From Ignavibacteriales bacterium (GTDB lineage: Bacteria > Bacteroidota > Ignavibacteria > Ignavibacteriales > Melioribacteraceae): a DNA stretch of 64,000 nucleotides. Each line of letters starts with the position of its first letter. Position 1 is the stretch's first letter. The notes beneath the pieces were generated by a model. That model saw only the letters and a program-made list of their open reading frames with translations, searched no databases and was not told the DNA's origin. The stretch covers positions 1,178,001 through 1,242,000 of the forward strand of contig JAPLFG010000003.1 in NCBI GenBank assembly GCA_026390795.1. The letters run 5' to 3'. Made by a program: the position numbers and the translations under genes. This document shows, in pieces, positions 14,551 through 24,421 of this stretch.

Positions 14551-14740
14551 ATTAGCCTATTGGATGTTTTCTATTTAAAGATAATTATTCTGGCTCTATA
14601 AATCATGCTATTTTATACTTATTTCTGAGCTTTCAAAGATTAAAATTTTTTAATCTTTCTTTAAGGAATTCTTAATACAGACAGAATAAGTTATGACCGT
14701 AAATTTTATTAAATATTTAATAACATAAATGGAGTCTCAA

Positions 14741-15085
14741 ATGAAGAAGTTAGTTGCATTAGTAGTATTGGTTGCCTTTACATCTTTAGCATTCGCTCAA
14801 GCTCAGCCACAAAAGAAATCTGAAGCAACAAAAGTTGCTACAGAAAAGAAAGTAGCCGAAAAGAAAGTAGAGGCTGCTAAACCAGTTGCTGAAAAGAAAG
14901 TTAAAGCAGCAAAAAATGTTGCTGAAAAGAAAGTTGAAGCAGCTGAAATGAAAGCAGAAAAGAAAGTTAAAACAGCTAAAAAAGTTGCTGAAAAGAAAAC
15001 TGAAGCGGCTGAAATGAAAGCAGAAAAGAAAGTCAAAACAGCTAAAAAAGTTGCTGAAAAGAAAGTAGAAGCTGCTAAAAAATAA
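14741..15085 (+). CDS. Exported Lys/Ala/Glu-rich protein of seven 11-residue repeats
   Basis: A signal peptide (MKKLVALVVLVAFTSLAFA) is followed by a short linker and then seven consecutive 11-residue units from residue 38 to the C-terminus at 114, with consensus VAEKKVEAAKK or KAEKKVKTAKK. Every unit has the same length, with no gap. The hydrophobic positions recur at 11-residue spacing, which predicts an undistorted amphipathic helix like group 3 LEA proteins or phasin-like coiled coils. It is strongly basic. The ATG at 14741 is chosen over 14729, because the GGAG at 14731-14734 serves as its ribosome site. It is a single gene with its own terminator. Function is unknown. Confidence 0.85.
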   Translation: MKKLVALVVLVAFTSLAFAQAQPQKKSEATKVATEKKVAEKKVEAAKPVAEKKVKAAKNVAEKKVEAAEMKAEKKVKTAKKVAEKKTEAAEMKAEKKVKTAKKVAEKKVEAAKK

Positions 15086-17216: not shown

Positions 17217-18947
17217 TTACTTTTTTACTTTTTTTAAAAAAACATTTACTGCTAAAAACACAACACCAAGAGAAAGCATAAATAGAAAAGCATCCACCGC
17301 CATTAGAATATAATTTCCCTTCTTAACATAATCTAAAAATAAAATTATTAAAGCAGTAATAGTGGTTGCTAGCATAAATAGAGCCGGGAATAAAGCGAAG
17401 AAATATTTCTTTCCTTTCAAAACCAACCAGCTTGCAACTGTTATTAATGCAAGCGCAGCAAGAAGCTGGTTTGCGGTTCCAAAAATCGGCCAAAGTACTG
17501 AGAATGCATTTGAGTACGCAAGAATGAACATGAAAATGACCGTCAACAAAGAATTGAACCAGTAATTTTTAAGAAACGGTTTGGGGCTTTTAAAAAGAAT
17601 TACCCACAACTCTTCAAATAAATATCTGTTCAACCTAACTGCTGCATCAAGAGTTGTAATTACAAATCCTTCCACAAGTAAAATTCCAAAAACCGTTCCA
17701 AGCGAGACAGGTATTCCCAAACCTTGATGAAATAAATTTCCCGCAGCCAAAGAAAAACCTAAAATTGGATTTGATTTGACTAACGGATCTGACGGCCACA
17801 CTATTGATTTGTAATCCACAAAACTCAGCCCAACACCAATTGCGAGTAGAACGCAAATGGCAAGGAGTGATTCCAAAAGCATGGAATTGAAACTAACTTT
17901 ACGGGCATCTGTTTCATTTGTAAGTTGCTTGCATGTTGTTCCGCCTCCTACAAGAGAATGGAATCCGGATATAGCACCGCAAGCGATAGTTATAAACATC
18001 ATCGGCCAAATCATGCCAAGGCTTTGTGCTCCTTCTGCAAAATTAAAATTTGGAAGTGAAACAACTGCGCCGCCGAATCCTACAAATAATAAAGAGATTG
18101 CCATCAAAATAATTCCACCGTAAAGAATTTGTACGTTAATAAAATCTCGCGGTTGAAGAATTACCCAAACCGGGGTTCCGGAAGCAATCAAAACATAGAT
18201 TGAAATTATGATCATCCAATGAAAGGGTTGTAATGAAACCGGGAATTCGATTCCAAGGAAAACCGAAACTATGCAAACAGCGGAAGCGAGCAGGTAAGCA
18301 TATAATGTTTTTATTTCTCTTTTATGAATTAACCAGCCGAGAAACGGCGCACAAATAGTAATAAATATTACAGAAGTTGAAGCAATGCCGCCGATTCTTC
18401 CATATGTAATTCCATTTGCTGTTACGGTTTTTAATATTGTATCGGTCCCTTCAACGCCGAGTTTTGTAAGAGGCCAAAGGGATGTTAAAGAAATTGCCGT
18501 TGCACTCAAAAAAGATGAACAAACAAGAAGCAACATCATAATTGTAAAGGTGATCATTAAATTAAAACCGGTTTTGCCGAGAGTGGTTCTTGCAACTTCC
18601 GCAATCGATTTTCCTTTTTCACGAAGACTGATGAACATAGTTGTAAAATCATGAACCGCTCCGAGAAAAATTCCGCCGACAACAACCCACATCCATGCTG
18701 GAATAAATCCGTATAGAACCGCCATTGTAGGTCCTATAATTGGACCCGCGCCGGCTATGGCGGAAAAATGATGAGCAAATACAACGTAGCGTTTTGTAGG
18801 TACGTAATCCCGTCCATCATTGATTGTTACAGCGGGAGTCGGATGGTTTGCATCTTCTCCTAGAGTTTTTGCAACCCACTTTGCATAAAATTTACTGGCT
18901 AAATAAAATAAAACTATCGGAATTGCTAAAAAGAAAAGTACATTCAT
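17217..18947 (-). CDS. cstA: Carbon starvation protein A family transporter
   Basis: The 576-residue protein has about 14 to 16 hydrophobic spans and the family signatures HHFSAIAGAGPIIGPTMA, GGIFLGAVHDFTTMFIS and GTANQLLAALAL. CstA proteins take up peptides or pyruvate when carbon is short. The ATG at 18947 is preceded by a GAGG ribosome site. The gene is monocistronic and lies in the same direction as malic enzyme, giving a plausible pyruvate link, although no common operon is likely because of the gap. Confidence 0.93.
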   Translation of the reverse strand: MNVLFFLAIPIVLFYLASKFYAKWVAKTLGEDANHPTPAVTINDGRDYVPTKRYVVFAHHFSAIAGAGPIIGPTMAVLYGFIPAWMWVVVGGIFLGAVHDFTTMFISLREKGKSIAEVARTTLGKTGFNLMITFTIMMLLLVCSSFLSATAISLTSLWPLTKLGVEGTDTILKTVTANGITYGRIGGIASTSVIFITICAPFLGWLIHKREIKTLYAYLLASAVCIVSVFLGIEFPVSLQPFHWMIIISIYVLIASGTPVWVILQPRDFINVQILYGGIILMAISLLFVGFGGAVVSLPNFNFAEGAQSLGMIWPMMFITIACGAISGFHSLVGGGTTCKQLTNETDARKVSFNSMLLESLLAICVLLAIGVGLSFVDYKSIVWPSDPLVKSNPILGFSLAAGNLFHQGLGIPVSLGTVFGILLVEGFVITTLDAAVRLNRYLFEELWVILFKSPKPFLKNYWFNSLLTVIFMFILAYSNAFSVLWPIFGTANQLLAALALITVASWLVLKGKKYFFALFPALFMLATTITALIILFLDYVKKGNYILMAVDAFLFMLSLGVVFLAVNVFLKKVKK

Positions 18948-19124
18948 CGCAGCCTCACAAGTGCCATAAAAGAGTTAAAGAAATATAAAAATATTTACAG
19001 TGATTCATAAATATTTTAAAGGAATAATGCGCCGCTTTCTGCTCAATTGGACTTGTTCATTGTATCACATTAAGTGTGGATAAATAATTGCAAACTGGTA
19101 ATAGAGAGGCTTTATTTTTAAACG

Positions 19125-20264
19125 TTATCCGCGTGTTGAGTGGATCATTGCCTTAAGAATACCGGGAAAAGTTTTTATAAAACTGAAGCCGATCTTCCGA
19201 GCATGATTATTTAAGATGATCCTTTGAACAGTTTTTGCTGTCGCAATTCTTTTATTGAAAAGACTCCGCCATTCCTTGATATAAATTTTTTCTGTTTCAA
19301 GGTCATCTAATTTTTTAAATCTCTGTTTATGGAAAACATCCGCCACCAAACTTGCGCTCTCTACAGCCATTCCAATACCGTCTCCCGTCAATGGCGCAAT
19401 AACAGCAGCGGCATCGCCGATCATATAAATACCGTCCTTAACCAGTTCGCGGTTTCCAAAATAAATATTGCCGGTTCCGTAAACCGGCAATTCCTCAAGA
19501 ACTTTATAAATAGAATCGTTGAATAACGATCCGAAACTTTTGTTCGACATCATCAACTTCTTAAGCTGTTCCCTCGGATGAGCCAAACCGTTATTTCTTT
19601 TTTCCAAAAAACAAACCGTCACCTTATTTTCGTCAACGGTATTTATGCCGCAATAAATATCAGCTGATGTAAAAATTTTAATTGTGTCTTTTTCCAAATT
19701 ATGGAATGCTGAGTCGTCAACATGAAATTTGATGCCGTTGAGGTATGATCTGCTGTTCAAAAACTTTCTGTTCAATTTTTTATCAAGAATGTTCTGTCTG
19801 CCGTAAGCGGCAATAACTTTATCTGCCGTAATTTCACTCAAGAATGAGCCATCGTGAATTGTAATGTGGTATTTATCATTACGAAATTTAATTTCTTTAA
19901 CTTCTACCGGTTGAAGAACTTCAATTCCTTTTTCTTTTCCGGATTTGAGCAGAAAGTTATCAAAGCGACCCCGCTTTAATCCATAGCCCGTGAAATTTAA
20001 GTCAGATTTAATAAACTTGCCGTTATCATAAAAAAATTTGAATGAAGTAATAGGATTTGGCTGAAGTAGCAAAAAATTTTCAAACAAATCAAGCCGTTGA
20101 AGATTGGAAGTAACTTCTCTTGATAAGAATTCTCCGCACAATGTTTCTCTTGGAAAAGATTTTTTTTCAATAAGACAGACCTCAAAGCCTAATTTGTTAA
20201 GACTAAGCGCCGCTACTGATCCGGCGGGTCCGCCTCCGATAATTGCAACATCATACTTTTTCAT
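19125..20264 (-). CDS. FAD-dependent oxidoreductase, geranylgeranyl-reductase/PHBH type
   Basis: The N-terminal FAD motif VAIIGGGPAGSVAALSL and later GDAAAVIAPLTGDGIGMAVESA identify a group A flavoprotein monooxygenase or geranylgeranyl-reductase-like enzyme of 379 residues. It lies 6 bases after the methyltransferase stop, in an operon with the type III polyketide synthase. In the srsABC operon of Streptomyces the corresponding flavoprotein hydroxylates alkylresorcinols to quinones. The same role is inferred here, although a reductase role is possible. Confidence 0.88.
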   Translation of the reverse strand: MKKYDVAIIGGGPAGSVAALSLNKLGFEVCLIEKKSFPRETLCGEFLSREVTSNLQRLDLFENFLLLQPNPITSFKFFYDNGKFIKSDLNFTGYGLKRGRFDNFLLKSGKEKGIEVLQPVEVKEIKFRNDKYHITIHDGSFLSEITADKVIAAYGRQNILDKKLNRKFLNSRSYLNGIKFHVDDSAFHNLEKDTIKIFTSADIYCGINTVDENKVTVCFLEKRNNGLAHPREQLKKLMMSNKSFGSLFNDSIYKVLEELPVYGTGNIYFGNRELVKDGIYMIGDAAAVIAPLTGDGIGMAVESASLVADVFHKQRFKKLDDLETEKIYIKEWRSLFNKRIATAKTVQRIILNNHARKIGFSFIKTFPGILKAMIHSTRG

Positions 20265-20270
20265 ATGAAT

Positions 20271-20948
20271 TTATTTGGTTATTACGGCAAGCCATCGAAA
20301 TGCCCACCGGTATCTTATTGAGTAGTTGAAATTTATTTTTGAAAGAATTTTTTTCAATTCATTTTTTATAAATCCTCTTCTAACCGATAAAGGTCCATCG
20401 TTTTGTACCATTTTGCTTCGCGAGAAAAAAAAGGTTAGTAGTTTAATTCCCATAAGAGCAAAGATTGAGCGCTGGAGATCGTTGATAATAATTCCATATC
20501 TGGAAATTTTTAAAAATTTTTCCAGTAACTCATTTATTTCTTCTTCGTTAAAATGATGTAAAAACAGAGAGGCGTGTATAATATCAAAGCTCGAATCTTT
20601 AAAAGGAAGATAAAACACATCACCGCAAATTACGTTCCCAGTTAATTTTTGATGATTTGTGTATCTGCAAACACCTTTATTAATATCAAAACTGCAGATT
20701 TCAACATTTCCATCAAAGAATTTTCCGATTTTAAAATTATCGGAACCGCCTGCACCAACATCTAGAATTTTAATCTGATTGGGGAAAGAGTGTTTATTCA
20801 GAAATAGTTTTAACCCTTTTCTTGTTGTGGAATTTCCTCCAAGAAACTTATTTATGACACTTAATTCTTTCAATGCATAATTAATTCTTTCATCGGTGAT
20901 AGAAAAATCATCCATAATTTCTTTTTGATAACTTCTTTTAAGAAACAT
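20271..20948 (-). CDS. Class I SAM-dependent methyltransferase of the polyketide operon
   Basis: The protein (225 residues from the ATG at 20948) has SAM motif I ILDVGAGGSDNF, the acidic ICSFDIN loop and the FDIIHASLFLHHF motif, typical of the UbiE/Coq5-like superfamily. Its start overlaps the stop of the polyketide synthase by one base (TAATG), so translation is coupled. This fixes the start and rules out the longer in-frame extension to 21008, which would lie within the synthase gene. It probably methylates the phenolic product of the synthase. Confidence 0.9.
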   Translation of the reverse strand: MFLKRSYQKEIMDDFSITDERINYALKELSVINKFLGGNSTTRKGLKLFLNKHSFPNQIKILDVGAGGSDNFKIGKFFDGNVEICSFDINKGVCRYTNHQKLTGNVICGDVFYLPFKDSSFDIIHASLFLHHFNEEEINELLEKFLKISRYGIIINDLQRSIFALMGIKLLTFFFSRSKMVQNDGPLSVRRGFIKNELKKILSKINFNYSIRYRWAFRWLAVITK

Positions 20949-22039
20949 TAAACGCCTTTCATTAAAGCAACTTCCATGCTTAACCCCGGGCCAAAAGCTA
21001 CAGCGCAAATAAAATCGTTACTCTTGATTTCCCTAGTGTTAAATATTTCCTTCATCACAAACAGAATTGATGCCGAAGACATGTTCCCATAGTTCTTTAG
21101 AACATTGCGCGATGGCATCATTTCTTCGTTATCTAATTGAAGTCCGGTTTGTAAGGAATCTAAAATTGCTCTACCGCCCGGATGGAGTGCCCAATGTTTT
21201 ATATCATTTTGTTTTATTCCCCAGTTATCAAAAATCTTTATTAGAGCTGGAACCGCCTCTTCTAAAATTATTTTAGGAAGTTCTGATGAAAGAATCATCT
21301 CAAACCCAAAATCACCAATTTTCCAGCCCATGTAATTAGACGAGTTTTTAAAAAGGATTGAATTTGTTTTAAGAAGTTTCAATTTTGATTTGGACTTCAT
21401 TGATTCAGAGTTAGAAAATAATACGGCTGCGGCTCCGTCGGCAAAGATTAGATTTGCGAGAATATTATCTTTTGTAGCTTCTGTTTGTAAATGAAGACTG
21501 CATAGTTCAACAGAAACTAAAAGTGCATTCCCCTCTTCATTTGAATTATTCATTGCTTCAAGAACGGAATTAAAACCAATTAGCGAAGCGGCGCATCCCA
21601 TAAAGCCGATGTTAGTCCTCTTAATAGTACGCGGTAATTGAAATTTTTCGATTAGGTTATAATCCAATCCGGGTGCAAAGAAACCTGTACATGATATTGT
21701 TATTAATCTGTTAATTTTATCAGGATCGAAGTCTGTACTATCAAAAAGTTTTTTTACTGCATCTTCGGTAAGAGCAATAGACCATTTTTCATATTCTTCC
21801 ATCCGGGTTTTAGTGCTCGGTCGTATGTAATTCCCATCAGAAGAATAAAATTTATTATCTTCTGAATCATCGGCATCCGGTAAAACAAAATATCTTGAAT
21901 CAATTCCCGAATGAGCCGAAGCGGCGTCAATCATTCTTGCCACAGCTGGTCTTCCAGTCATTCTTTTTTTTAATTCTTCAGACACTTTTGATTGAAGAAC
22001 TTTATACGGAGGCGAAGCTGTGGCTATATCGATTAACAT
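20948..22039 (-). CDS. Type III polyketide synthase (alkylresorcinol/alkylpyrone type)
   Basis: The 363-residue enzyme has the chalcone-synthase catalytic triad: C149 in NIGFMGCAAS, H286 in HWALHPGGRAIL and N319 in NYGNMSSAS. Such enzymes extend an acyl-CoA starter with malonyl-CoA to make alkylpyrones or alkylresorcinols. The downstream methyltransferase and flavoprotein point to a methylated, oxidised phenolic lipid, possibly a quinone, placed in membranes. The start ATG at 22039 opens the three-gene operon. A 275-base gap separates it from the divergent response regulator. Confidence 0.95.
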   Translation of the reverse strand: MLIDIATASPPYKVLQSKVSEELKKRMTGRPAVARMIDAASAHSGIDSRYFVLPDADDSEDNKFYSSDGNYIRPSTKTRMEEYEKWSIALTEDAVKKLFDSTDFDPDKINRLITISCTGFFAPGLDYNLIEKFQLPRTIKRTNIGFMGCAASLIGFNSVLEAMNNSNEEGNALLVSVELCSLHLQTEATKDNILANLIFADGAAAVLFSNSESMKSKSKLKLLKTNSILFKNSSNYMGWKIGDFGFEMILSSELPKIILEEAVPALIKIFDNWGIKQNDIKHWALHPGGRAILDSLQTGLQLDNEEMMPSRNVLKNYGNMSSASILFVMKEIFNTREIKSNDFICAVAFGPGLSMEVALMKGV

Positions 22040-22274
22040 TTTATATTGATTCCCAAGGTTTAATAATCTTAACGATCAATCATTAACTGATTTTGATATA
22101 AGAACACTATTTTCAATTGAATGATTCCACTATATCCTAAAGGCTTAAAAATACAAGTAGCATGCAAAATTAGAGAGACGGATATATAATTAACTATTGC
22201 TATTTTTGATAATATTAAGCTTTAATCAAGAGTAGAATTGGCAGGTAATTCAAACAATAAAAAACTAAACACCC

Positions 22275-22299
22275 GGGAGTTTACGAACTCTCCTTTTTT
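22275..22299 (+). terminator. Terminator-like hairpin just upstream of response regulator
   Basis: GGGAGTT pairs with AACTC-T-CC (7 bp with one bulged T) around a TACG tetraloop and is followed by six T. It ends 15 bases before the ATG of the response regulator on the same strand, with no gene upstream on that strand. It may be an attenuator of the two-component operon or the end of an unseen small RNA. Confidence 0.6.
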
Positions 22300-22314
22300 G
22301 TTTATCTTAAGTAT

Positions 22315-22983
22315 ATGAGAATATTATTAGTAGAAGACGAGAAAAAGGTTGCTTCCTTTATAAAGAAAGGATTGGAAGAAGAGCTTTATGAAGTTGACAC
22401 CGCGTTCAACGGGAAGGATGGAGTTGAACTTGCTCTTACAGATGAGTATGATTTGATTATCTCAGACATTATGATGCCGCTGATGAACGGTTTACAACTC
22501 ACAAAGGAATTACGAAAAAATAAAATTATTACTCCAATACTTTTGCTTACTGTAAAAGATGGCACAAAAGATAAAGTTGAAGGACTTGATAGCGGTGCCG
22601 ATGATTATTTATCAAAACCGTTTGCATTCGAAGAATTGACAGCTAGAGTGCGTGCTTTGCTAAGAAGACAAGACTCGCAAAAAGATAATTTGTTAAAAGC
22701 AGATGATCTGAGCATCGACCTAGTAGCCCATAAAGTAACCCGGTCCGATAAAGAGATTATACTAACTCCGAAAGAATACTCAATCCTGGAATATCTTTTA
22801 AGAAATAAGAATAAAATCATTACGCGTACAAAACTTATTGAACATGTATACGATTTTCATTTCGACAGCGGCACAAATGTAATTGATGTTTATATCAATA
22901 AACTCCGGATGAAAGTCGATCATGGATTTGAAAAACAGATGATTCACACTGTACGAGGCGTGGGTTATATTATTAAAGAATAG
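22315..22983 (+). CDS. OmpR-family response regulator
   Basis: The receiver domain has the phosphoacceptor D51 (LIISDIMMP), the acidic pair ED at the start (LLVEDE) and the lysine in YLSKPF. The C-terminal winged helix contains LTPKEYSILEYLL, and its recognition part ends HTVRGVGYIIKE. It most resembles CusR/CopR regulators of metal and envelope stress. The stop is 13 bases before the kinase ATG, so the pair is one operon. A terminator-like hairpin lies directly upstream. Confidence 0.93.
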   Translation: MRILLVEDEKKVASFIKKGLEEELYEVDTAFNGKDGVELALTDEYDLIISDIMMPLMNGLQLTKELRKNKIITPILLLTVKDGTKDKVEGLDSGADDYLSKPFAFEELTARVRALLRRQDSQKDNLLKADDLSIDLVAHKVTRSDKEIILTPKEYSILEYLLRNKNKIITRTKLIEHVYDFHFDSGTNVIDVYINKLRMKVDHGFEKQMIHTVRGVGYIIKE

Positions 22984-22996
22984 TTTAGACTTGGTT

Positions 22997-24421
22997 ATGA
23001 TTACAAAGATTAAATTATTTTTCACTTCAACACGATTCAAAATAACAATCTGGTATTCTTCCCTTTTCTTTTTGATGGAATTTTTACTCGGCATGGTAAT
23101 CTATTTTTACATTTATAGCATTTCCCATATGAATCTGGATTCAAGCCTCAAAACGCAGGCAAATTCTATTCTACGAGTTATCGAAGAAAAACATGTTGAT
23201 TTGGATTCTTTTCAGCCTAGCACCGTATACAAATCTGAAGATGAGTTAATTTGGGATATTGCTTACGATGCAATTGTTTTCAATCGTAGAAACACTTTTA
23301 TAGAAGTTACTACATCGAACAGAATAATTTTCAAGACTGCAAATCTTGGTAAGATTACTTTATCCTTCCCGGATAAGAAAGAAAAAGCCGCTCTGTTCGA
23401 TTATAAGAATATAGATCTATCTGAAGGCGTGGTAAGAGTTTGTCAATTAAAAAGCAAAAAGTATGTTGTTATTGTTGCTTACTCCAAAGAATACATTTCC
23501 CAAACACTCAGCAATCTAAAAGAAATTTATATTCTCATCGCTCCAATATTTTTCCTTATTTCAATTGTAGGCGGCGCTCTTATTTCCGCCAAATCCCTCT
23601 CTCGTATTGATGCAATTATAAGGAAGACAGAAGAAATAACCGGTCAAAATTTAGATGAGACCATTCCTGGCGGTGAATATTTTGATGAGTACGGTAGGTT
23701 AGTGAAAAAAATGAATGAAATGGTTGGGAGAATTAAAACTTCTGTGGATTTTATGAACCAATTCTCTATTTCGGCAGCGCATGAATTAAAAACTCCTTTG
23801 ACAATCTTGCGCGGTGAAATCGAGATTGCTCTTAAGTCTGAAAAAACCCCGCAACAATACATTGAGGTTTTAAAAAGCAATTTCGAAGAGACAATAAGAA
23901 TGATTAAGATCATTGATAATCTTTTCTTTATTTCGAAGAGCGATAACGCAATGATCAATATAGACTATCAAGAAGTCGAGCTTAAATCATTCTTAAGTTC
24001 TTTGTCTAAAAGTTTGGGAATATTAGGTCAAGAAAAAAACATGTCTTTGGTTTTAGAGGACTTGCCAAATTTATATATACAGATTGATATTAATTTGATG
24101 AAACAAGCATTATCCAATATCATCGATAATGCATTCAAGTTTGGAGATGAAAATACGGATGTGACCATTTCGGCAATTGATTTGGGAGAGGAAATTAAAA
24201 TTTGCATCACTAATACCGGAGAAAGAATTCCAGCAGAGGAAGTCGAAAAAATATTTGATCGATTTTATCGTGCAGATATATCTAGAACAAGGAAAACCGG
24301 GGGTGTAGGACTGGGATTGTCTGTGGTGAAATCAATTGTGAATCTTCACAAAGGAACAGTAGAAGTGCAAACAACGAACAATTCATTAACAAAATTAATT
24401 ATATATCTTCCAAAAATCTGA
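22997..24421 (+). CDS. Sensor histidine kinase, CusS-like
   Basis: Two membrane spans (about 16-42 and 180-200) enclose a periplasmic sensor of some 140 residues. A HAMP domain follows, then HisKA with the phosphoacceptor in SAAHELKTPL (H262), and a HATPase domain with NIIDNAFKF and GGVGLGLSVVKSIVNLH. A TTG at 22991 is in frame, but the ATG at 22997 is the more usual start. It pairs with the preceding OmpR-type regulator. The signal is unknown. Metal resistance genes are not adjacent. Confidence 0.92.
   Translation: MITKIKLFFTSTRFKITIWYSSLFFLMEFLLGMVIYFYIYSISHMNLDSSLKTQANSILRVIEEKHVDLDSFQPSTVYKSEDELIWDIAYDAIVFNRRNTFIEVTTSNRIIFKTANLGKITLSFPDKKEKAALFDYKNIDLSEGVVRVCQLKSKKYVVIVAYSKEYISQTLSNLKEIYILIAPIFFLISIVGGALISAKSLSRIDAIIRKTEEITGQNLDETIPGGEYFDEYGRLVKKMNEMVGRIKTSVDFMNQFSISAAHELKTPLTILRGEIEIALKSEKTPQQYIEVLKSNFEETIRMIKIIDNLFFISKSDNAMINIDYQEVELKSFLSSLSKSLGILGQEKNMSLVLEDLPNLYIQIDINLMKQALSNIIDNAFKFGDENTDVTISAIDLGEEIKICITNTGERIPAEEVEKIFDRFYRADISRTRKTGGVGLGLSVVKSIVNLHKGTVEVQTTNNSLTKLIIYLPKI

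What the first reader, a model, noticed from the sequence alone, without database searches (positions are those of the whole stretch)
20271..22039. srs-like type III polyketide operon in a non-actinobacterial genome
A chalcone-synthase-type enzyme with an intact Cys-His-Asn triad is coupled by TAATG to a methyltransferase and then by 6 bases to a flavoprotein. The order matches the phenolic-lipid operon srsABC of Streptomyces and suggests a membrane phenolic lipid or quinone. The product in this lineage is not known to me.
Basis: partly seen in the sequence, partly recalled or inferred. Interest (0 to 1): 0.55.

Follow-up and report, generated by a model that had tools for sequence, protein, structure and literature searches.

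The report
Phenolic-lipid operon common in Bacteroidota
Three adjacent genes that most likely build and finish a greasy phenol-type membrane lipid really are there, but the arrangement is widespread and resembles a published cyanobacterial and planctomycete operon type more than the Streptomyces one first suggested.

Summary
On the minus strand a type III polyketide synthase (PKS; 20948-22039, triad C149-H286-N319) overlaps a methyltransferase (20271-20948) at TAATG. Six bases on follows a flavoprotein (19125-20264), outside the reported coordinates. Orthologous synthases (55-74% identity) occur in 17 of 95 other related genomes. All 17 have the methyltransferase directly downstream, and 16 show the flavoprotein.

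"Srs-like" is only partly right. Order and likely chemistry fit, but the methyltransferase is a class I enzyme, not the isoprenylcysteine type (ICMT) reported for SrsB, and the synthase lies outside the clade of ICMT-linked synthases. The closest described kind is hidABC of cyanobacteria and the planctomycete operon whose synthases make alkylresorcinols.

W239 sits at the ArsB Trp281 position that directs resorcinol cyclisation; it is Trp in 23 of 23 clade members.

The operon is ordinary in its phylum sample: 95 of 136 type III PKS places carry both a class I methyltransferase and a flavoprotein. One point I did not find described: the flavoprotein slot holds one of two subfamilies, switching once on both the synthase and methyltransferase trees.

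Best reading: a methylated, oxidised long-chain alkylresorcinol. The product is untested. New member of a known kind.

The parts
20948..22039 (-). Type III polyketide synthase, 363 aa; triad C149, H286, N319; W239 at the position of CHS-fold PKS18 L266 and PKS11 Trp, M248 nine residues on; C117 and C180 at PKS18 tunnel positions S143 and C205
20271..20948 (-). Class I SAM-dependent methyltransferase, 225 aa; start overlaps the PKS stop (TAATG); E10, D13, N33, G67, H131, H132, D157, R160, D184, S188, R218 invariant in 40 of 40 aligned operon methyltransferases
19125..20264 (-). Flavoprotein, 379 aa, GGGPAGS start, CGEF motif, no DGxxSxxR motif, GDAA..PLTGDG motif: 'type B' flavoprotein of this operon kind
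22040..22314 (.). Spacer between the operon and a divergent response regulator gene (22315-22983 +); sigma-70-like matches over 18900-22350 no more than in shuffles

Best explanation
A three-gene phenolic-lipid operon. Step 1 (inferred from active-site residues and relatives): the synthase takes a long-chain fatty acyl thioester, adds three malonyl units and closes the tetraketide by aldol condensation to a 5-alkylresorcinol. Step 2 (inferred): the class I methyltransferase adds a methyl group to the ring or to a ring oxygen. Step 3 (inferred, least certain): the flavoprotein oxidises or hydroxylates the ring, giving a methylated alkyl-hydroquinone or benzoquinone that sits in the membrane. 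Shown here: the genes, their coupling, their co-conservation as a unit, the catalytic triad and the cyclisation Trp. Not shown: substrate, product and role. The menaquinone gene menA is present in this genome, so the lipid would be an extra membrane compound, not a replacement quinone.
For: Conserved unit: in 17 of 17 other ortholog genomes PKS then MT, in 16 of 17 then flavoprotein. In the 23-row clade (SH-aLRT 100) PKS and MT families are shared by all 23 loci and the flavoprotein by 22; other neighbours are shared by at most 6 loci, apart from reading frames antisense to the PKS (frames of 90 aa or more, flanks of unequal length). W239 lies where PKS11 has Trp, PKS18 Leu, THNS Tyr and CylI Leu. 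It is Trp in 23 of 23 clade rows and 53 of 53 other P>M>F rows. ArsB W281G switches resorcinol to pyrone, and ArsC G284W the reverse in part (PMC6274091 passages). M248 lies 9 residues after W239, the spacing of ArsC 284 to 293, whose Met is part of that switch. Of the small PKS18 tunnel residues, C205 is kept (C180) and S143 is another small residue (C117). Synthases of the planctomycete trio made pentadecyl- and heptadecylresorcinols, and co-expressed MT and flavoprotein of Gimesia maris gave one further methyl, probably on carbon (PMC10896814). A Sphingobium operon of the same kind is preceded by acyl-carrier protein and ketosynthase genes, as expected for an acyl-ACP starter. menA.
Against: No product is known to me for any member of this clade. 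CylI has Leu at the Trp position; that it too makes a resorcinol is recalled, so the Trp would not be necessary. Other PKS18 tunnel residues are not kept: A209 is L184, N208 is H183, H221 is N196, L348 is S321. The ICMT-linked synthases have the same Trp (15 of 15), so it does not separate operon kinds. The best PDB sequence match is 4b0n, recalled as a brown-algal phloroglucinol synthase. The planctomycete paper could not assign the flavoprotein step. The window flavoprotein lacks the DG motif of classical NAD(P)H-dependent aromatic hydroxylases, and its nearest folds are halogenases and a reductase-like protein as well as hydroxylases.
Confidence: 0.7

Rival explanations
1. A true srsABC-type operon making the same methoxy-methyl-alkylbenzoquinone as Streptomyces griseus by the same enzymes.
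For: Same order PKS-methyltransferase-flavoprotein; Trp at the ArsB W281 position, also reported for SrsA (PMC5916927 passages).
Against: Methyltransferase of another fold class (SrsB-type is ICMT). ICMT-linked synthases form a separate clade and differ at pocket positions: C117 is S/T, A122 is T and M248 is V/I in 15 of 15.
Confidence: 0.07
2. An alkylpyrone synthase operon: the tetraketide lactonises, and the two tailoring enzymes modify a pyrone.
For: ArsC, 71% identical to ArsB, makes pyrones; residue changes at one site can switch the outcome.
Against: Trp239 and Met248 are both kept in all 23 clade members; synthases of the planctomycete trio gave resorcinols.
Confidence: 0.1
3. The flavoprotein is not a ring hydroxylase but a reductase or a halogenase, so the end product is a reduced or halogenated phenolic lipid.
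For: NCBIfam best hit is the geranylgeranyl reductase family, 129.8 bits against a cut-off of 158.8. Top folds are halogenases FasV, PltA and ChlB4 at Z 38. CGE motif and no DG motif.
Against: The halogenase motif WxWxIP (recalled) is in 0 of 102 flavoprotein hits of these loci. The reductase score is below its cut-off. Class A hydroxylases such as 3-hydroxybenzoate 6-hydroxylase are close behind at Z 35.
Confidence: 0.2
4. A short-starter or malonyl-only enzyme (phloroglucinol, 3,5-dihydroxyphenylacetyl-CoA), unrelated to lipid.
For: Top PDB match is 4b0n at 165 bits, recalled as a brown-algal phloroglucinol synthase; NCBIfam best hit is DpgA at 162.9 bits.
Against: DpgA cut-off is 425 bits, far above. 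The 4b0n residue at the Trp position is Leu. Of the 10 NCBIfam families listed, DpgA is the only type III PKS model, so the hit is not specific.
Confidence: 0.08

Closest known systems
hidABC, hierridin operon of cyanobacteria (HidA methyltransferase, HidB oxidoreductase, HidC type III PKS)
   Same: Same three functions; [quoted passage not shown]
Planctomycete methyltransferase-oxidoreductase-type III PKS operon (58 of 96 PKS genes, PMC10896814); here Paludisphaera borealis L063
   Same: Same three families; alkylresorcinols shown on expression of the synthases; class I methyltransferase; flavoprotein with a PFTGEG motif like the window's PLTGDG.
   Different: Order MT-FAD-PKS; identity to the window only 36% PKS, 25% MT, 26% flavoprotein; CGA in place of CGE.
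srsABC of Streptomyces griseus and pkq of Mycobacterium smegmatis
   Same: Order PKS-MT-flavoprotein and resorcinol-type Trp; products are methylated alkylbenzoquinones, electron carriers in mycobacteria (PMC9927152, PMC5916927 passages).
   Different: SrsB-type methyltransferase is ICMT; here it is class I.
PKS-methyltransferase-flavoprotein operons on plasmids of Deinococcus radiodurans, Paracoccus, Roseomonas, Falsirhodobacter, Microvirga and Sphingobium
   Same: Same order and families.
   Different: PKS identity only 32-38%; Deinococcus has the other flavoprotein type, GGQG.
PKS-ICMT pairs (Stenotrophomonas, Nitrobacter, and 22 of 136 places of the phylum sample)
   Same: Type III PKS with Trp at the same position (15 of 15, 8 of 8 more).
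   Different: Different methyltransferase, no flavoprotein next door, separate PKS clade.

Membership tests
Type III polyketide synthase (chalcone synthase superfamily) | Cys-His-Asn triad and family profile | tested here: met
   C149/H286/N319 align to PKS18 C175/H313/N346; PF02797 98.7 bits, cut-off 27
Alkylresorcinol synthase | Trp at ArsB 281 / ArsC 284 position | tested here: met
   W239; 23 of 23 clade rows, 53 of 53 other P>M>F rows; PKS11 W, PKS18 L, THNS Y. ArsB and ArsC themselves were not aligned; the position is taken through PKS11 and the papers
Alkylresorcinol synthase | Makes alkylresorcinol from a long-chain acyl starter | not testable with these tools
   needs enzyme assay or lipid analysis
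srsABC operon | Order PKS, methyltransferase, flavoprotein | tested here: met
srsABC operon | SrsB is an isoprenylcysteine carboxyl methyltransferase | tested here: not met
   window MT hits only class I Methyltransf_25/11/12/31; SrsB as ICMT from PMC6669644
srsABC operon | SrsA clade of the synthase | tested here: inconclusive
   ICMT-linked PKSs are a separate clade, SH-aLRT 98, but SrsA itself was not in the tree
hidABC / planctomycete operon | Type III PKS with class I methyltransferase and flavoprotein in one operon | tested here: met
   similarity to the Paludisphaera trio E 6e-76, 1e-15, 3e-21
hidABC / planctomycete operon | Close sequence kinship (48-55% between published hid and planctomycete proteins) | tested here: inconclusive
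   36/25/26% to Paludisphaera; HidA-C and the tested planctomycete enzymes were not held
DpgA (3,5-dihydroxyphenylacetyl-CoA synthase) | NCBIfam equivalog cut-off 425 bits | tested here: not met
   162.9 bits
Class A NAD(P)H-dependent aromatic hydroxylase (flavoprotein) | DG motif DGxxSxxR (recalled family mark) | tested here: not met
   window has IAAYGRQNILDKK there; 43 of 43 GGQG-type flavoproteins have the DG motif and 0 of 48 GDG/GNG-type do
Flavin-dependent halogenase | WxWxIP motif (recalled family mark) | tested here: not met
   0 of 102 flavoprotein hits, the window's included
Geranylgeranyl reductase family | TIGR02032 cut-off 158.8 bits | tested here: not met
   129.8 bits

The most novel reading that the evidence does not exclude
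The 'type B' operons, to which the window belongs, are a separate branch of the phenolic-lipid operon kind. Synthase, methyltransferase and a CGE-motif, DG-less flavoprotein diverged together, and the branch makes a not yet described alkylquinone or reduced or halogenated phenolic lipid that serves as a second electron carrier beside menaquinone in low-oxygen Bacteroidota. The third step would use reduced flavin from a separate reductase or need no oxygen, unlike the classical hydroxylase of the 'type A' operons.
Probability: 0.15. Interest if true: 0.55.

Novelty: new member of a known kind. Interest (0 to 1): 0.3.

Why it matters
It shows that the alkylresorcinol trio described in cyanobacteria and planctomycetes is also the commonest type III PKS setting in the Bacteroidota sample read here (95 of 136 places), where my paper searches found no product or description. 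The A/B flavoprotein split gives a concrete prediction (two end products from one scaffold) that two expression experiments could test.

Tried and rejected
Operon as orphan or chance neighbours: rejected by conserved order and by the lack of other widely shared neighbours. Foreign island: G+C of the stretch is 0.34-0.38, within the window's 0.335-0.414; no tRNA in the window. Replacement of menaquinone: menA matches in 88 of 92 genomes searched, the window's own included, 87 over the cut-off, with or without the operon. Halogenase: motif absent. Promoters: sigma-70-like matches equal to shuffles (13 found, 12.9 expected); the Bacteroidetes-type TANNTTTG box, a recalled motif, was also at chance in L001 (6 found, 5.83 expected). 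Terminator-like sites: 5 found against 1.8 expected in 18900-22350, but none just past the flavoprotein gene. The genome-contig scan with the single sequence gave only one relative, L003. Papers: PMC6051517 (Anand 2015) and PMC3294851 (Nakano 2012) are not held; a search for T3PKS with Ignavibacteria gave 3 papers, seen only in the listing. The organism is not identified by name. It is placed in Bacteroidota because L003, titled Bacteroidota bacterium, shares flanking genes with L152 of the window's class. No ICMT structure is in the list; that is no test, the point was decided by Pfam.

Full report
WHAT IS THERE. Three minus-strand genes lie head to tail: type III PKS 20948-22039, methyltransferase 20271-20948, flavoprotein 19125-20264. 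PKS stop and methyltransferase start share TAATG, and six bases separate methyltransferase and flavoprotein. The reported range leaves out the flavoprotein. The PKS scores 98.7 bits for the chalcone synthase C-terminal domain, and its triad C149-H286-N319 aligns with PKS18 C175-H313-N346. The window genome has one such PKS; the other hit (24% identity, E 1e-4) I read as an ordinary ketoacyl synthase III.

IS IT REAL AS A UNIT. One search covered 96 genomes, the window's own included; 17 of the 95 others carry the synthase at 55-74% identity. All 17 have the methyltransferase next to it and 16 of 17 the flavoprotein after that. L008 ends 266 bases past the methyltransferase match without a flavoprotein match. 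Three further synthase places (in G003, G061, G069) are only 29-32% identical; the remaining matches are 22-29% identical, E 8e-11 or weaker, and I read them as ketoacyl synthases. Presence is patchy: 4 of 12 genomes of the window's genus (its own included), 2 of 44 others of its family, 3 of 5 and 9 of 35 in the two other families of the order (counted; some of these genomes are incomplete). Beyond the trio, no real neighbour family is shared by more than 6 of 23 clade loci; the one family shared by 14 consists of frames antisense to the PKS (frames of 90 aa or more, flanks of unequal length).

HOW COMMON. In a phylum sample, 135 of 296 genomes hold a type III PKS, at 136 places. All 136 were read. 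63 are PKS>MT>FAD, 22 FAD>MT>PKS, 22 PKS>ICMT, 12 PKS alone, 6 FAD>PKS>MT, 5 PKS>MT, 6 other. Both a class I methyltransferase and a flavoprotein are present at 95 of 136. One of the PKS>MT calls (L219) rests on an 18-bit match, and some lone PKS genes lie near contig ends. Outside the phylum the same order occurs on plasmids of Deinococcus radiodurans, Paracoccus, Roseomonas, Falsirhodobacter, Microvirga and Sphingobium (annotations; third genes matched to the flavoprotein profile, Microvirga's only at 123 bits). Psychrobacter has the two tailoring genes convergent, and Paludisphaera, a planctomycete, has MT>FAD>PKS. So the trio is widespread and ordinary.

WHICH KIND. SrsB-type enzymes are isoprenylcysteine carboxyl methyltransferases (PMC6669644, passages). 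The window enzyme matches only class I families, as do 40 of 40 operon relatives for Methyltransf_25 and _11. On the PKS tree (133 rows, quick method, SH-aLRT) the window lies in a 23-row clade (100), all from its own class as far as placed; the 15 ICMT-linked synthases, with 2 lone ones, fall in another clade (98). Several rows have long branches, and the deep order is unsure. SrsA, HidC and ArsB were not in the tree. [quoted passage not shown] Identity to the Paludisphaera trio is low: 36, 25 and 26%.

WHAT IT LIKELY MAKES. PMC6274091 (passages) reports that ArsB W281 directs aldol closure to resorcinol, and that Trp at ArsC 284 repositions Met293. The window has W239 and M248, nine apart. 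W239 is Trp in 23 of 23 clade rows, 53 of 53 other P>M>F rows and 15 of 15 P>ICMT rows, but Phe in 13 of 13 F>M>P-type rows, which also differ at A122 (Ile) and C180 (Pro); 11 of 11 further F>M>P rows also have Phe. PKS11 has Trp, PKS18 Leu, THNS Tyr, CylI Leu. Of the PKS18 tunnel residues named in PMC6274091, C205 is kept (C180) and S143 stays small (C117), but A209, N208, H221 and L348 are changed (L184, H183, N196, S321). PMC5916927 and PMC9927152 (passages) use the same Trp as a resorcinol mark and report that the finished alkylbenzoquinones carry electrons at low oxygen. In planctomycetes, co-expressing the Gimesia maris MT and flavoprotein gave one methylation, probably on carbon, and left the flavoprotein unassigned. 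The model of the window methyltransferase (pLDDT 93.5) lies close to plantazolicin methyltransferases (Z 20.1, rmsd 3.0, 208 aligned) and to CouO, titled a C-methyltransferase (Z 19.3, 2.9, 204), and NovO (Z 18.9, 3.0, 204). This fits, but does not show, ring methylation.

THE FLAVOPROTEIN. Operon flavoproteins fall in two sets. Type A has DGxxSxxR and GGQG (43 of 43), the marks of classical NAD(P)H-dependent hydroxylases (family marks recalled). Type B has CGE[FY] and lacks the DG motif (52 sequences, 51 of them on the PKS tree; the window is one); two, L063 and L114, fit neither. The type changes exactly once on the PKS tree and once on the methyltransferase tree (on the MT tree the split has SH-aLRT 100 and the shuffled mean is 31 changes). 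So synthase, methyltransferase and flavoprotein appear to have diverged together. Of 18 further flavoproteins read later, 17 are type B and 1 type A (not placed on the trees). The type B model (pLDDT 89.7) is nearest to FasV (Z 38.4, rmsd 2.8, 360 aligned), PltA (Z 38.0, 2.6, 363) and other halogenases, and close to squalene epoxidase and 3-hydroxybenzoate 6-hydroxylase (Z 35). The halogenase WxWxIP motif is absent in 102 of 102. I therefore favour ring oxidation, but with less certainty than steps 1 and 2.

LITERATURE LIMITS. Searches showed no paper on a product of this trio in Bacteroidota. The library holds open-licence papers only, and most hits were seen only in the listing.

VERDICT. 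A sound observation with a nearly right idea of chemistry, filed under the wrong closest relative. It is a new member of a known kind, with one modest new point, the two co-diverged flavoprotein branches.

Noticed in passing
L089, L091, L165, L171, L173, L177, L182, L183, L187, L189-L192, and L196-L203, L205, L210, L214: Synthases in FAD>MT>PKS operons have Phe for the resorcinol Trp in 13 of 13 and 11 of 11; the first 13 also have Ile for A122 and Pro for C180: a different pocket and perhaps a different product.
   Followed up: partly
L180:1993-3237 and L180:4198-5463, minus strand: Two PKS-like genes close together; in one the His-Asn of the triad reads Gln-Tyr, like a non-condensing partner.
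   Followed up: no
L195 (Sphingobium yanoikuyae plasmid pKN1): The same trio is preceded by acyl-carrier protein and ketosynthase genes, hinting at a dedicated acyl-ACP starter.
   Followed up: no
window 14729-15085 +: Small Lys/Ala/Glu-rich protein with a signal-like start, built of 33-base tandem repeats (7.1 copies at 14849-15082).
   Followed up: no
window 22315-24421 +: A response regulator and histidine kinase pair divergent from the operon; not tested as its regulator.
   Followed up: no
L140, L146, L134, L158, L153-L155: A separate clade of lone type III PKS genes (7 rows, SH-aLRT 100) without methyltransferase or flavoprotein neighbours.
   Followed up: no
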